IMG/VR virus record: IMGVR_UViG_3300009151_000004
Location: 1 to 45,778 of that record
Length of the DNA: 45,778 nucleotides
Source of the DNA: a virus
Reading direction: 5' to 3' (one strand)
Shown: piece by piece, positions 27,540-44,367 of the stretch
Layout of the letters: every line of letters starts with the position of its first letter
Position numbering within the stretch: position 1 is the stretch's first letter
The notes under the pieces: generated by a model
Seen by the model: only the letters and a program-made list of their open reading frames with translations
Databases searched by the model: none
Told to the model about the DNA's origin: nothing
Program-made: the position numbers and the translations under genes

Positions 27540-28582
27540 GCGAGCACCTCGCAGACCACGGTCTGGTCGCCAGCGTTGGCGGCTGCTCTTTTGGCGTCCC
27601 TGGCCTTGATGAAGGCGATGGATTCCATGGCTGCCTCTTCTGGTGTCTGCCTGCGGCTGAAGGCGGCCTGCTGTTGGGCTAGCCGCAGGCCGTAGGTGCG
27701 CCAAAGGGAGTGGGTGACGCTCATCCACGGCTTGATCGAGGCGCGATCAATGCCCTGCTGAAGCTGCGATCGCAGGGCCTCGGTGCCGCCCTGGGGGTCT
27801 TCCTGGATTAGGCTGAGCTGGGTAATCAGGCTGGCCCAGGCCCTCTCAGTGCGGGCCCCTGCCTTGGTGGCCCAGAAACCCAGGATCTCTGGGGCTACGG
27901 GCATCAGCTCAAACGGGATCAACTCCTCGCAGGGCTCAAACCTGCGCCTTCGAGACTTGATTGGGGTCATGGTCGGCGCTGGTGGTGGTTCGGAAACCAT
28001 ACCGCCCTCCGGAGCTTTGGGAACCGCAGCAACCTTCGGCAAAACCTCAACCGCAAGCGCTTCGAGCTGGTCCTGGCCCGCTCTCCCCCCACTGGGGGGT
28101 AAGGGGGGTTCTAAATCTTGTTCAATTCCTCTTGTTAAATCCCTCTTGTTAGGGTCCCCCTTTTGGGGGAGGGGTCCCCTACCCCTTTTGGGGGAGGGGT
28201 GGGATGCCCCTTTTAGGGGATCCCCCTTTTGGGGGAGGGATACCCCTTTTGGGGGAGGGGTCTGTTCGTACCTCACATGGAAAAGAGCGGTCTGACCAAC
28301 ACGGTCCACCCTGCTAATCCAGCCGTTTTCCACAAGCCAGCGAAGGCTTGATCGAATGTCCTCGGCCTTCATCCGGCACTCCAGGGCCAACCGGCTGATG
28401 GACGGGAAAGCCTGATCGTCCTGGCCCGCGTAGTGCCAAAGCCAGGCATAGACGAAAAGGGTGCCTTTGCGATCGGCGCAGGCTTCGAGCAGGGCGATTG
28501 GCACCTGGGCAAACCGTGGTCGCGTAATTCTTGGTTGCGTCAAACTGGCTGCCAATTCGGCAGCATCTTGGGCTTGGGCCAT
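27536..28582 (-). CDS. Replication initiator-like protein with HTH domain
   Basis: The protein has 348 residues from the ATG complement at 28582. The extension to 28894 has no supporting features. Residues 35-105 form a winged helix-turn-helix (FVYAWLWHYAGQDDQAFPSI, later SSLRWLVENGWISR), as in phage replication initiators. Residues 105-150 are a Pro/Lys/Gly linker encoded by iteron-like DNA repeats. Residues 225-348 are a helical domain with Trp/Arg pairs, possibly for recruiting a helicase. Like lambda O, the gene appears to contain the origin it would recognise. The role is inferred from this layout. Confidence 0.65.
   Translation of the reverse strand: MAQAQDAAELAASLTQPRITRPRFAQVPIALLEACADRKGTLFVYAWLWHYAGQDDQAFPSISRLALECRMKAEDIRSSLRWLVENGWISRVDRVGQTALFHVRYEQTPPPKGVSLPQKGDPLKGASHPSPKRGRGPLPQKGDPNKRDLTRGIEQDLEPPLPPSGGRAGQDQLEALAVEVLPKVAAVPKAPEGGMVSEPPPAPTMTPIKSRRRRFEPCEELIPFELMPVAPEILGFWATKAGARTERAWASLITQLSLIQEDPQGGTEALRSQLQQGIDRASIKPWMSVTHSLWRTYGLRLAQQQAAFSRRQTPEEAAMESIAFIKARDAKRAAANAGDQTVVCEVLA
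28085..28260. repeat. Iteron-like array and AT-rich patch, candidate replication origin
   Basis: Five copies of CCCCTTTTGGGGGAGG or close variants start at 28156, 28182, 28207, 28222 and 28243. A related C6-ACT-G6 inverted repeat lies at 28085-28099. Between them, 28108-28152 is AT-rich with repeated CTCTTGTTA. Iterons beside an AT-rich unwinding element inside the initiator gene is the lambda-type origin plan. Alternatively the repeats only encode a flexible linker. Confidence 0.55.
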
Positions 28583-32376: not shown

Positions 32377-32937
32377 TCACCCAACTTTCTGCGTTTTGCG
32401 CCCCCATGTGCTAGCAAGCTGACCGCTGGTCAGCGCCTCATGGGCTTCGTCGAGCTCACCTAGCGCCACACCCAGAGCGATCATCGATTTACGGTCCATC
32501 ATCCGCTGTGCCCGCAGTTTCAAGGCCTCGATCTTTCGCCTGGCCTCCACCACCAGGCCAACAGCCTCCTGCACTTCCCTGGCCATCGGGTCGTAATGCT
32601 CCACCTCTGTGGTGGCTTCCCCATTGGAAACAGGTCGCACCGAGGAAATCCTGGCCTCCTGAGGGGCGGCAGGCACCACCCGAACCACCTTGATGAGCGT
32701 GCTGGCCTGGTGCTGCCGGTAGTTTTCGGCAGCAACGGAATCCCGCCACTCAAAGGCCGGGTGAAGGGGGGCCTCCTCGGGCCTGGCCTCATCGACAACC
32801 ACAGCGGGGATGATCGTGCCATCGCGCTGGCGGATCCGGTCCAGTTCGCTGCCGGCGGTCTGGGCATCGATGCCGAGAGTTTCATCACCATCCTCGATGC
32901 GGAAGGTGTACTCTGTCTGCGCTTTAGTGAAGTTCAT
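32377..32937 (-). CDS. Conserved phage protein of unknown function
   Basis: The protein has 186 residues from the ATG complement at 32937. The middle section shows VVVDEARPEEAPLHPAFEWR, then AAENYRQHQASTLIKVVRVV. I recognise this as a recurring phage family (acidic residues, 'SPLHPxFEW' and 'AAExYRxxQAR' motifs) with no established function. The C-terminal part is a helical hairpin (residues 120-175). It is the last gene before the leftward terminator and lies downstream of the long pentanucleotide array. Confidence 0.65.
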   Translation of the reverse strand: MNFTKAQTEYTFRIEDGDETLGIDAQTAGSELDRIRQRDGTIIPAVVVDEARPEEAPLHPAFEWRDSVAAENYRQHQASTLIKVVRVVPAAPQEARISSVRPVSNGEATTEVEHYDPMAREVQEAVGLVVEARRKIEALKLRAQRMMDRKSMIALGVALGELDEAHEALTSGQLASTWGRKTQKVG

Positions 32938-32994
32938 TGATCAGGGGATAGGGAATGAGGGGGCCCATTCATGCCCCCATTCTGCTGCAATTTG

Positions 32995-33790
32995 GCAACG
33001 GCAACGCCAGCCACGCCTTGCGGTTGCTTGCACCGTCAAGCCAGGCCACGCCGGCCGAACCGGGCCTTGCCTAGTCAAACCACACCTCGCTGGCCGAACC
33101 TTGCCTTACTTTGCCTAGTCAGACCTCGCCTGCCTGGCCGTGCCCAATCGGGCAATGCCGGATCACTCCACGCCTGCCTAGCTATTCCGTGTCTACCAAG
33201 CCATGCCAACGAAGCCATGCCTGCCGTGCCGCTCCTGGTCTGGCAACTCCACACCTCGCCACACCTGCCGTCCCGTTCCCGGTACTGCCGATCCCCGCCT
33301 TTCGGGCCATGCCTGCGATCCCTGGCCATTCACTACCGCGTCCCGCATCGTCACGCCATGCCTGCGACACCTTGGGGTGCCATTCCTCGCCTACCTCGCC
33401 TGCCTGTCTAGGCCGAACCTAGTCCAGCCATCGCTGCCTCGCCTGCCGCTCCTTTCCTGTCCGTGCCCAAGAAGCCTTGCCGGCCACGCCAATTCGGTCC
33501 ACTGCGCCCAAGCCTTGCCCACGGTGCCTTGCCTGCCAACCCGTGCCAATTCAGTCCTGTCTTCACCTCGCCACGCCTGCGCTGCCGTGCTTTGCATAGC
33601 CCGACCACGCCTAGCCAGCCGCGCCAATGGTTTCCACCCCAGGCCACGCCTAGCCGGCCATAACTGGCCAGGCCGTGCCTTGCAAAACCATGCCGGCCAT
33701 TCCGGTCCAACCTGAGCGTGCCACGCCTGCGAAACCCTGCGAATCCTTGAAACGACGCACGTTGCCTAACCTGCGATGCCAGGCCCGGGC
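32995..33790 (-). repeat. Degenerate pentanucleotide array (NNGCC / GGCNN)
   Basis: About 800 bp in which GCC or CC recurs every 5 bases over long stretches, for example AAGCC-ATGCC-AACGA, TTGCC-GGCC-ACGCC and TCGCC-ACGCC, with occasional 4- or 6-base slips that reset the phase. The plus strand is C-rich and the minus strand G-rich (GGCNN). A 5-base period is incompatible with codon structure, and the open frames crossing it give only low-complexity peptides. It lies between two leftward genes, so it may be transcribed as a long G-rich RNA. Confidence 0.8.
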
Positions 33791-33825: not shown

Positions 33826-34476
33826 TCAGATGATCTCGAACAGCCCAAAGCCCAGGCCGGCAGATGCCTTGCTGTCGGGCCTTCCTTCGCCGATGCCGAC
33901 CTGGAGGCCCACCCGGCTGATCAGGTTGACAAGATCGGTTGAGCTGAACATGCCGGCGTCGTAACGCATCCGCAGGACGGCGGCCCATTCCCGGTACATC
34001 GGCCGGCAGCGCAGATCCACCACGCCCGTGGCATTCCGCGTTGGGGCCACCCACTGTTCAGCCTCTCCTTCGGTGAGACGCACCAGGGGGGCGCCATCCA
34101 CCTTGTCGAACCCGTCAGCAAAAACGCTGAAAGCGAGCTTGGCGTGGGTCATCTTGACGCCCACCGTTTTGCACGCGGAGATCGCACCGTTTCTGAAAGC
34201 GGCAGCGTGAATGCCCTCCCAACCCTCCGCAGAAATGTGCTTGGCATTCTCGAACAGGGCATTGAAATCCTTCGGCTCGCGCACCTTTTTGCCCCTGGCA
34301 CTGCTTCCAGCCTCCTGGGTGGCCCGCATCATCTCGATCGCTTTGGCGCTGAACCGGTTGACAACAAGTGGGCTGGTGCCCCTGATGTTGATGTCGATTC
34401 GCCGGAAGTCCGGGGCTTTGATTGAGATGGCCTCTTCTGCGGCCGGTGCTGCTTTTGCTTTGGTGGCGGTTGCCAT
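33826..34476 (-). CDS. Conserved phage protein with GIGEGRP motif
   Basis: The protein has 216 residues from the ATG complement at 34476; the extension to 34551 crosses element B and is unlikely. Core features are RRIDINIRGTSPLVVNRFSA, then GIHAAAFRNGAISACKTVGV, a conserved Trp (YREWAAVLRM), and the end RVGLQVGIGEGRPDSKASAG. I know this pattern from phage replication/recombination regions, where it is unassigned. The Gly-rich end resembles RAMP-type RNA-binding folds, but that is speculative. It is the first gene of the leftward unit that contains the pentanucleotide array, and it diverges from the Gp157 gene. Confidence 0.6.
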   Translation of the reverse strand: MATATKAKAAPAAEEAISIKAPDFRRIDINIRGTSPLVVNRFSAKAIEMMRATQEAGSSARGKKVREPKDFNALFENAKHISAEGWEGIHAAAFRNGAISACKTVGVKMTHAKLAFSVFADGFDKVDGAPLVRLTEGEAEQWVAPTRNATGVVDLRCRPMYREWAAVLRMRYDAGMFSSTDLVNLISRVGLQVGIGEGRPDSKASAGLGFGLFEII

Positions 34477-41717: not shown

Positions 41718-43291
41718 CCCCCATCCGCGCGGCTCATCCCTCCGCACGCCTTGCCCTGCTGGAGCTGGAGCAGGAGGCCACCACTGCCACCCTTGCGCCT
41801 CAGGCACCCTACACGCGGTCCTTTGGTGATCACATCGCAGCGGTTTATCCCAAGTTCTCTTTCAGCCGGCACAACACCCGCCTAATTGACATCGGCCAAC
41901 GCATTGGTGCCGGTGAGATCTCCAGGTTGCTGCTGATGCTGCCGCCACGGCACTTCAAATCCACGATCTTCAGTCGATTCCTGCCGTCCTGGTTCATCCG
42001 CCGTTACCCCGATCGCACCTGGGGACAAGGCGCCCACAGCCAACCCCTCGCTGAAGAGTTCGGGCAGGCGGCCCGTGACTACTTCACCGCTTCCGGTGGC
42101 ATCCTTGACCCGAGCAGCGCCGGCAAGGGCCGCTGGAAGGTCGCCGGCCAGCTTGGTGGGTTCTGGGGTGCTGGCGTCGGCAAGGGGACCGGCCTGCCGG
42201 CCCACTTCATCAATGTCGATGACCCGATCAAGAACCGGCAGGAGGCTGAATCCGCCGCCTACCGCCGGCAGCTTTACGACTGGTGGAGCACCGTGCTTAA
42301 CACCCGGGAGGAGCCCGGCTGCAGCAAGTTGATCACCCACACCAGATGGGCCGATGCCGACCTCATCGGCTGGCTGATCACCCAGGTCGAAGAACTTGAG
42401 CGCGATGGCAACGCAGATGCGGCCGAGCCATGGCACGTGATCCAGATGCCGATCATCGCCGAGCCGGTGCAGGTTGCGGTCCCCGCGACGCTCACCCTGG
42501 AGGTCGACGACCGCCAACCTGGGGAGGCCCTGGACCCCGATCGCTACAACGCCGAGTGGGCCCGCAAGAAACGGCTGAACACACCAGAGCGAGATTGGGC
42601 GGCCCTCTATCAGCAGCGACCCCAGCCATCTGGTGGCACGGTCTTCAATGCGGAGATGCTCCGCTTCTACGGCACTCGGGAGCGGCCTGGCCTCGAGGGT
42701 GACGCGATGCTGCCAGATCGGTTCGTTCGCAAGCTGGCGAGCCTGGATTGCACCTTCAAGGACCTCCCAGGCAGTGACATGGTGGCCATGCAGCTATGGG
42801 GCCAGGACGGTGCCGGCGCATGGCTGATCGACCTGGTGAACCAGCGCCTTGACTTTTCGGCGACCATGGACAGGATCCAGACCCTGTGGCCTGCCTGGGG
42901 CTTTGGTGAGCTGCTGGTGGAGGACAAGGCCAATGGCAGCGCCGTGATCAGTGTTCTCAGACGTGCCGCCGCCGGCTTCATCGTTCGAGCGGTTGACCCA
43001 GTGGGCGGGAAGGTGGCCAGGGCCAATGCTGCGACGCCAGAGTTCAACCAGGGCCGCGTCTTCTTTCCCCGCTGGCACCCACTGACGGGAGTGCTCACCG
43101 GGCAGTTGCTGAAGTTCCCCGGCGACAGCTTCGACGACCAAGTGGACGCCTTGAGCCAAGCGATCAACACCATGCAGTCTACCGGCCCGATGCGCGTGAC
43201 TACCGCCACCTACGGCCATGGCGCTGTGGCACAGCCTCCGCGACCGGAGCCACCGCCCCGGCGGCAATCCGCTATTCCCGGCCTCCGATGA
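41714..43291 (+). CDS. terL: Terminase large subunit
   Basis: The protein has 525 residues from GTG 41714, overlapping the previous stop. ATPase motifs: LLLMLPPRHFKST (Walker A, residues 74-84), HFINVDDP (Walker B, 164-171) and ITHTRWADADLIGWL (motif III, 207-221). Nuclease acidic residues: SLDCTFKD (Asp345), LLVEDKAN (Asp404) and GDSFDDQVDAL (474-478). The family normally has PPRHGKS, and here Phe81 replaces that Gly. The protein translocates DNA into the procapsid and cuts it. The C-terminal 50 residues are Pro/Arg-rich. Confidence 0.95.
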   Translation: MTPIRAAHPSARLALLELEQEATTATLAPQAPYTRSFGDHIAAVYPKFSFSRHNTRLIDIGQRIGAGEISRLLLMLPPRHFKSTIFSRFLPSWFIRRYPDRTWGQGAHSQPLAEEFGQAARDYFTASGGILDPSSAGKGRWKVAGQLGGFWGAGVGKGTGLPAHFINVDDPIKNRQEAESAAYRRQLYDWWSTVLNTREEPGCSKLITHTRWADADLIGWLITQVEELERDGNADAAEPWHVIQMPIIAEPVQVAVPATLTLEVDDRQPGEALDPDRYNAEWARKKRLNTPERDWAALYQQRPQPSGGTVFNAEMLRFYGTRERPGLEGDAMLPDRFVRKLASLDCTFKDLPGSDMVAMQLWGQDGAGAWLIDLVNQRLDFSATMDRIQTLWPAWGFGELLVEDKANGSAVISVLRRAAAGFIVRAVDPVGGKVARANAATPEFNQGRVFFPRWHPLTGVLTGQLLKFPGDSFDDQVDALSQAINTMQSTGPMRVTTATYGHGAVAQPPRPEPPPRRQSAIPGLR

Positions 43292-44367
43292 ACACTCTTT
43301 CCAGACCGCAACAGACCGATGCCGTCCCTCAACCTGCCCAAGGCGCCTCTCTCCCAGCTGATCGGCAAGCCGGTGGCGGGGACGTGGAGACTGCGCCAGA
43401 CCACCAACGGGAGCCATTTGGAGTTGTTCCGTTTCGGGGGGAGCTGGAGCCCACCGTCACCAGCAGTGAGGATCCATCAGGCCCGGCCCGGCAGTCACGC
43501 GGTCCTGCTCGATCGCGGCGAGGTGTTCGTGCAGGAGAGCCGCTAGAGCAACCGGAGAAATCCGGCGCACCCCCGCGCACCGAGCTATCAGAGCGGCTGA
43601 TCGTCGAAAACCAGGGCCTGGCGCACGCAGCGGCGAACAAGTGGGCCCGCCGGTGCTCCCGGCCGTTTGAGGACTTCCTGGGGCCCGCCCTGGAGGGCCT
43701 GATCAATGGCTGCCGCCGCTATGACCCATCCAGGCTCAACCCCGCCACTGGGCGTCCCTACGCGGTGTCCTCCTGCGTCTGCCAGTTCATCGAGGGCGCC
43801 ATCAAACATCACATCCGCGACCACGGTTACGACGTGAAACTGCCGTCGAAATGGCGTGAGCACTACCCCCGGGTGAAGCGGTTGCTGGCCGAGGGCCAAA
43901 GCCTGGCGCAGATCGTGGAGGCCCTGCCGGTGTTCACCCAGGACGAGATCACCGAGATGATGGGCGGCATGGTCGGTTCCATCGAACTGGAGGACGAGCT
44001 AACCCTGTTCAGTCAGCACCAGCCCCAAGCCACCGAAACGGACATCGCGCCGACGCTCTATGCCCTGACAGAGGCCGCCTTCGCCAGCCTCAGACCCGCT
44101 GACCGTGGGCTCCTGGAGCGATGGGCCGCCGATCCCGCCCGCCGGCCCTTCCCGTCTGGTCCGATGCTGCAGTTTCATGGCCGCCTGAAGGCCCAGCTGC
44201 GAGGCCGCACCCTGGCCCAGTTCCGTCAGGGCCTGCTGGGCATCGAGATTGCCGTCAGGCCCCCGGAGCCCCGCGAGCGCCGCCCCCGGCAGCCGAAGCC
44301 GGCCCCCGTGGTGCAGTCGTCCCTGTTTGCCCGCCGCAAGCCGCATCCCAAGGCAGTGAAACTGTGA
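43288..44367 (+). CDS. Sigma-70-like protein (regions 2-3)
   Basis: The protein has 359 residues from ATG 43288, which overlaps the terminase stop; GTG 43384 is an alternative. Residues 100-182 follow sigma region 2: ERLIVENQGLAHAAANKWAR, then EDFLGPALEGLINGCRRYDP, then FIEGAIKHHIRDHG. Residues 185-225 resemble region 3 with a short HTH (EGQSLAQIVEALPVFTQDEI). A clear region 4 is not seen. It may bind host RNA polymerase core and direct late transcription. Residues 1-95 are low-complexity, and this DNA also encodes the more protein-like 43319 frame. Confidence 0.6.
   Translation: MNTLSRPQQTDAVPQPAQGASLPADRQAGGGDVETAPDHQREPFGVVPFRGELEPTVTSSEDPSGPARQSRGPARSRRGVRAGEPLEQPEKSGAPPRTELSERLIVENQGLAHAAANKWARRCSRPFEDFLGPALEGLINGCRRYDPSRLNPATGRPYAVSSCVCQFIEGAIKHHIRDHGYDVKLPSKWREHYPRVKRLLAEGQSLAQIVEALPVFTQDEITEMMGGMVGSIELEDELTLFSQHQPQATETDIAPTLYALTEAAFASLRPADRGLLERWAADPARRPFPSGPMLQFHGRLKAQLRGRTLAQFRQGLLGIEIAVRPPEPRERRPRQPKPAPVVQSSLFARRKPHPKAVKL
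43319..43546 (+). CDS. Nested 75-residue protein in another frame
   Basis: ATG 43319 to TAG 43546 lies wholly inside the 5' part of the sigma-like gene in a different frame. APLSQLIGKPVAGTWRLRQT, then HLELFRFGGSWSPPSPAVRI and SHAVLLDRGEVFVQES form a regular small beta fold, more protein-like than the overlapping sigma-frame sequence. I do not recognise it. Either both frames are used or the sigma-like protein starts later. Confidence 0.5.
   Translation: MPSLNLPKAPLSQLIGKPVAGTWRLRQTTNGSHLELFRFGGSWSPPSPAVRIHQARPGSHAVLLDRGEVFVQESR

What the first reader, a model, noticed from the sequence alone, without database searches (positions are those of the whole stretch)
32995..33790. Eight hundred bp of degenerate pentanucleotide array, non-coding, strand-asymmetric
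GCC/CC recurs at 5-base intervals well over a hundred times with phase slips, while the other positions of each unit are nearly free. Such a period destroys codon structure, so the selected property is likely DNA or RNA shape, or a protein reading one contact per 5 bases. It lies between two leftward conserved phage genes and would give a G-rich (GGCNN)n RNA or a C-rich lagging strand. I recall similar-looking short pentamer tracts in other siphophages near this gene family, but cannot document it here.
Basis: partly seen in the sequence, partly recalled or inferred. Interest (0 to 1): 0.8.

Follow-up and report, generated by a model that had tools for sequence, protein, structure and literature searches.

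The report
Phage VIPR guide-RNA array, cyanophage
The odd five-letter repeat tract is the guide-RNA array of a VIPR system, a recently described relative of CRISPR that phages use to recognise DNA (in tested systems, mostly that of rival phages); here it lies beside its RNA-binding protein gene in a cyanophage-like genome and packs about 19 guides end to end.

Summary
A degenerate GGCNN array fills window 33004-33785 (minus strand), with a spectral peak at period 4.82-4.86, power 22 against a shuffle maximum of 4.2. It is not a DNA-shape element or a coding region. The next gene (33826-34476, minus) is a RAMP protein whose family profile matches the solved SUSP1 Vipr protein (PDB 36pp, E 4e-34) and whose predicted fold matches Csm3/Cas7. 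The locus is therefore a VIPR system (Viral Interference Programmable Repeat; preprint PMC13142463, April 2026): vipr, a vap-like gene (32377-32937) and a vrRNA array of GGY/NN repeats whose NN dinucleotides read DNA with one base skipped. Of 197 distinct vipr loci from many phages, prophages and MAGs, 178 carry the array on the same strand. Decoding 1139 guide runs by the 1-nt-skip rule gave more strong matches than shuffles (10 versus 1.5 on average), several in other phages' vipr genes. The 'phase slips' are guide boundaries: 4-nt GGCA-type units recur every 8-11 repeats, giving about 19 guides here. No target of this window's own guides was found. The kind is known; the delimiter grammar is not stated in the preprint's main text.

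The parts
33826..34476 (-). vipr gene (gene A, phrog_4652): RAMP/Cas7-like protein that should bind the array RNA; start taken at the ATG (MATATKAK), the open frame runs on to 34551
   Evidence: profile of 111 homologues matches PDB 36pp 'SUSP1 Vipr protein' E=4.2e-34; AlphaFold model pLDDT 93.9 whose best PDB matches are Csm3/Cas7-type subunits of type III CRISPR complexes
33004..33785 (-). vrRNA array: 160 GGY/NN units (130 of 5 nt, 27 of 4 nt), about 19 guides of mostly 6-10 units delimited by 4-nt units GGCA/CGCA/GGCC/GGCT
32952..32999 (-). conserved 3' element at the end of the array, one copy per locus; candidate 3' tail or end signal
   Evidence: conserved in an alignment of 15 relatives and as an exact pattern; predicted fold no better than shuffles
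32377..32937 (-). gene B (phrog_15946), probable vap (VIPR-associated protein); mostly helical, function unknown
   Evidence: syntenic with vipr in annotated phages, homologue found in 175 fetched loci; model pLDDT 84.7, no significant fold match

Best explanation
This is a phage-borne VIPR locus. Leftward transcription across vipr, the array and vap (inferred) gives a G-rich RNA in which GGY triplets alternate with free NN dinucleotides. Vipr, a minimal Cas7-like RAMP, coats the RNA at about one subunit per 5-nt unit (inferred from the preprint's ribonucleoprotein and the RAMP fold). The NN pairs of one guide together base-pair with double-stranded DNA, skipping one target base between pairs (shown experimentally for SUSP1 in PMC13142463; supported here by statistics on relatives of this locus). 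Binding represses genes of competing phages or of other VIPR systems. Each guide is a run of about 8-11 five-nt repeats, and the 4-nt units (GGCA and relatives) mark where one guide ends and the next begins (a sequence regularity shown here; how the RNA is cut or loaded is inferred).
For: Family match of gene A to the solved SUSP1 Vipr, E=4.2e-34; predicted fold matches Csm/Cas7 RAMPs; GGY/NN unit composition G .91, G .86, C .71 + T .18, then free, free over the fetched arrays; array on the same strand in 178 of 197 distinct vipr loci; skip-1 decoding gives 20 hits of score >=34 against 0, 0 and 2 for skips 0, 2 and 3, and 10 guides >=34 against a mean of 1.5 and maximum of 4 in 20 order-shuffles; 5 of the 19 best hits lie in vipr genes, which are 5.2% of the searched DNA; units between successive GGCA peak at 8-11; description of VIPR in PMC13142463.
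Against: No target of the window's own guides was found. No transcript data. Gene B could not be matched to a named vap. The guides here (mostly 6-10 units between delimiters) are shorter than the 9-16 repeats of the tested vrRNAs, and there is one 3' element per array, not one tail per guide. Reversed-order control reached 4 hits >=34, so some individual hits are chance. The searched DNA was itself selected around vipr genes.
Confidence: 0.9

Rival explanations
1. The array is a VIPR guide array, but its main job here is regulation of or immunity to VIPR systems (guides against vipr genes, including its own), not attack on competitor phages generally.
For: Several strong hits of relatives lie in vipr genes, mostly guides at the start of their array (L164, L034, L193, L217; also L225, not first); the L164 guide also partly matches its own vipr.
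Against: Other strong hits lie outside vipr (L229 to L228 twice, L177 to L176, L134 to a sigma-factor gene, L224 to L229); the searched DNA is centred on vipr; the preprint reports mainly satellite and prophage targets.
Confidence: 0.15
2. The repeats are a DNA element (origin, partition or packaging site, or DNA-shape signal) read as double-stranded DNA by the neighbouring protein.
For: Period near half a helical turn; fixed GG positions; strand asymmetry.
Against: The neighbouring protein is a RAMP of the Vipr family; the array keeps the strand of vipr while its place in the gene pair moves; skip-1 decoding of the NN positions finds targets above shuffles.
Confidence: 0.03
3. It encodes a repetitive protein; parts are annotated as genes in related phages.
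For: Open frames of 84 to 170 aa lie in the tract; genes 43 of phage Pipp and 40 of UmaThurman are annotated over array DNA.
Against: Homologous arrays differ mainly by 1-nt and 5-nt indels, which break any reading frame; open frames are expected because GGCNN repeats rarely make stop codons.
Confidence: 0.01

Closest known systems
VIPR (Viral Interference Programmable Repeat), PMC13142463; SUSP1 and Pseudomonas fulva prophage systems
   Same: Homologous Vipr RAMP, adjacent accessory gene, GGY/NN tandem repeat RNA locus, phage-borne, 1-nt-skip code supported in relatives
   Different: One 0.78-kb array without tails between guides; guides mostly 6-10 units, delimited by 4-nt GGCA-type units; one conserved 3' element at the end of the array; own targets unknown. 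The preprint mentions staggered arrays with overlapping vrRNAs, which may be the same thing; its supplement could not be read
Type III CRISPR Csm3/Cas7 (and type VII Cas7) effectors
   Same: Predicted fold of the effector; a RAMP thought to line up along a guide RNA
   Different: No repeat-spacer array (Tandem Repeats Finder reports nothing in 32995-33790); 5-nt rather than 6-nt periodicity; noncontiguous rather than contiguous pairing

Membership tests
VIPR | Vipr protein: minimal RAMP homologous to SUSP1 Vipr | tested here: met
   family profile hit to PDB 36pp, E=4.2e-34; model matches Csm/Cas7 folds
VIPR | Locus RNA of alternating GGY/NN repeats | tested here: met
   unit listing and composition
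VIPR | Accessory vap gene beside vipr | tested here: inconclusive
   conserved second gene is present, but no vap sequences were available to compare and its fold has no match
VIPR | Carried mostly by phages and prophages | tested here: met
   window is a virus record with terminase, Sak annealing protein and Gp157-like genes
VIPR | vrRNA = 9-16 repeats followed by a 3' tail | tested here: inconclusive
   6-10 units between delimiters in the window; a single conserved 3' element
VIPR | NN dinucleotides match DNA targets with a 1-nt skip | tested here: inconclusive
   met for relatives as a group; no target found for the window's own guides
VIPR | vrRNA transcribed and bound by Vipr; represses targets | not testable with these tools
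   needs RNA sequencing, pull-down and reporter assays
CRISPR-Cas | Array of near-identical repeats and unique spacers | tested here: not met
   Tandem Repeats Finder reports no array in 32995-33790; units are degenerate and 4-5 nt

The most novel reading that the evidence does not exclude
These arrays are compact multi-guide memories. Guides are stored end to end without tails, delimited only by a 4-nt GGCA-type phase shift, and arrays grow and change by single repeats (5 nt) and by steps of about one guide (44 or 48 nt), reaching about 594 units in L192. That would be a guide grammar and turnover mode distinct from both CRISPR arrays and the tailed vrRNAs characterised so far.
Probability: 0.4. 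Interest if true: 0.75.

Novelty: new member of a known kind. Interest (0 to 1): 0.6.

Why it matters
VIPR is a proposed ancestor of CRISPR with a noncontiguous guide code, known here from one recent preprint. This locus and its relatives give an independent statistical check of the 1-nt-skip rule, show the system across cyanophages, actinobacteriophages and many other genomes, and suggest how to parse long arrays into single guides, which is needed to predict targets.

Tried and rejected
Rfam on the locus (no match at E<=1) and on 16 relatives (only two tRNAs, both in L034; no hammerhead ribozyme at gathering threshold). PADLOC, Pfam: nothing for either gene; NCBIfam: nothing for gene A, one sub-threshold hit for gene B. 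Reading 4-nt units as ordinary NN units did not improve target matches. Targets of the window's own guides: about 2.7 Mb of held DNA, four exact IMG/VR scans and 201 genomes of the family of a Synechococcaceae MAG, none convincing; the last gave 17 two-mismatch hits, about nine of which share one sequence pattern, and one 8-unit guide gave 29 IMG/VR hits without related cyanophage context. No sigma-70 promoter-like site was found, and no terminator-like site on the minus strand. A CRISPR array, a coding repeat and a DNA-shape element were considered and rejected (see rivals).

Full report
Observation. The tract at 32995-33790 is real. Lag-5 autocorrelation, the Fourier peak (period 4.82-4.86, power 22 versus a shuffle maximum of 4.2) and a window-wide scan all single it out. 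On the minus strand it reads GGCNN GGCNN...; 130 of its units are 5 nt and 27 are 4 nt.

Neighbours. The gene on its 5' side (33826-34476, minus, phrog_4652) and the gene on its 3' side (32377-32937, minus, phrog_15946) each match 33 records in the phage collection, with the same breakdown by organism (27 Mycobacterium, 5 Gordonia, 1 cyanophage). In the annotated records I opened they occur together: Cylindrospermopsis prophage Cy-LDV1, Gordonia Pipp, Ecliptus, UmaThurman and ODay, Mycobacterium Quico and Gorge (where one 1218-nt gene covers both), and a Rhodoplanes phage-like plasmid. All of these carry the array on the coding strand of the pair, but in different places: between the genes, upstream of the first, or downstream of the second.

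Breadth. Searches of GTDB genomes and IMG/VR brought 20 and 187 further loci, with some overlap with the first 19. A Viterbi detector for GGCNN chains (no hits in 80 shuffled loci) finds the array on the strand of the first gene in 178 of 197 distinct loci. Of the 19 without it, six have less than about 160 bases after the gene, and L170 has the array on the other strand. The largest array, L192, has 594 units.

Identity. A profile of 111 homologues matches PDB 36pp, SUSP1 Vipr protein, with E=4.2e-34. The predicted structure (pLDDT 93.9) has as its best matches Csm/Cas7-type CRISPR subunits. PMC13142463 (bioRxiv, April 2026) describes VIPR: a Vipr RAMP, an accessory gene, and vrRNAs of GGY/NN repeats whose NN dinucleotides pair with DNA with one base skipped, apparently used against competing mobile elements. 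The window locus fits on protein, repeat and genome context.

Code test. I concatenated the NN dinucleotides of runs of 5-nt units and searched held DNA with the arrays masked. Skips of 0, 1, 2 and 3 nt gave 0, 20, 0 and 2 hits of score >=34. With 1139 distinct guide runs and a larger DNA set, 10 guides reached >=34 at skip 1, against a mean of 1.5 (maximum 4) in 20 shuffles of unit order, and 4 for reversed order. Strong hits include two guides of L229 against one 160-bp stretch of L228, a guide of L134 against the annotated sigma-factor gene of Pseudomonas phage LESphi2 (annotation), and guides of L164, L034, L193, L225 and L217 against vipr genes. Hits at the 32 level are partly chance (shuffle mean 6.35 against 19 observed at >=32).

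Guide grammar. Matched guides lie between 4-nt units, usually GGCA. Across arrays, GGCA recurs most often every 8-11 units. In the window, delimiters GGCA, CGCA, GGCC and GGCT give 19 runs, nearly all of 6-10 units. In homologous guides of the cyanophage clade the two G positions change least (0.059, 0.090), the NN positions more (0.129, 0.137) and the Y position most (0.212); the commonest indels are 1 and 5 nt, with a further class at 48 nt. These counts come from all-against-all alignments, so they are not independent events. That the 4-nt units delimit guides is a sequence regularity; RNA processing is inferred.

Limits. No target of the window's own guides was found. Gene B has no solved relative or fold match, so calling it a vap rests on synteny. 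The 3' element (32952-32999) is conserved in sequence, but its fold is not better than shuffles. The preprint's supplement could not be read, so the type of this system and the novelty of the delimiter are open. 'Cyanophage' for the window rests on its relatives (Cy-LDV1, a Synechococcaceae MAG), not on a host record.

Noticed in passing
window 28116-28262: Tandem hairpin-like repeats (consensus GGGTCCCCCTTTTGGGGGAG and relatives); function not examined.
   Followed up: no
window 43288-44367: A sigma-factor-like gene (phrog_36098) directly after the terminase large subunit gene.
   Followed up: no
L023 3724-3993; L026 3595-3918: Genes 43 of Gordonia phage Pipp and 40 of UmaThurman are array DNA annotated as protein genes.
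   Followed up: yes
L028 2803-4020: In Mycobacterium phage Gorge one annotated gene (gp54) covers both vipr and vap.
   Followed up: partly
L030 2195-2510: In Pseudomonas phage LESphi2 the array is in three short blocks, each ending in GGGCTG and a possible hairpin, which looks like the tailed vrRNAs of the preprint.
   Followed up: partly
L192 3672-6565; L199 3752-6383; L211 3676-6442: Very long arrays of 538-594 units, far beyond the vrRNAs tested in the preprint.
   Followed up: no
L170 1469-1915: The one clear array on the strand opposite to vipr.
   Followed up: no
L034 1248-1416; 5711-8127: A contig labelled Bacterium HR16 with three arrays after vipr and two adjacent tRNA genes nearby.
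   Followed up: no
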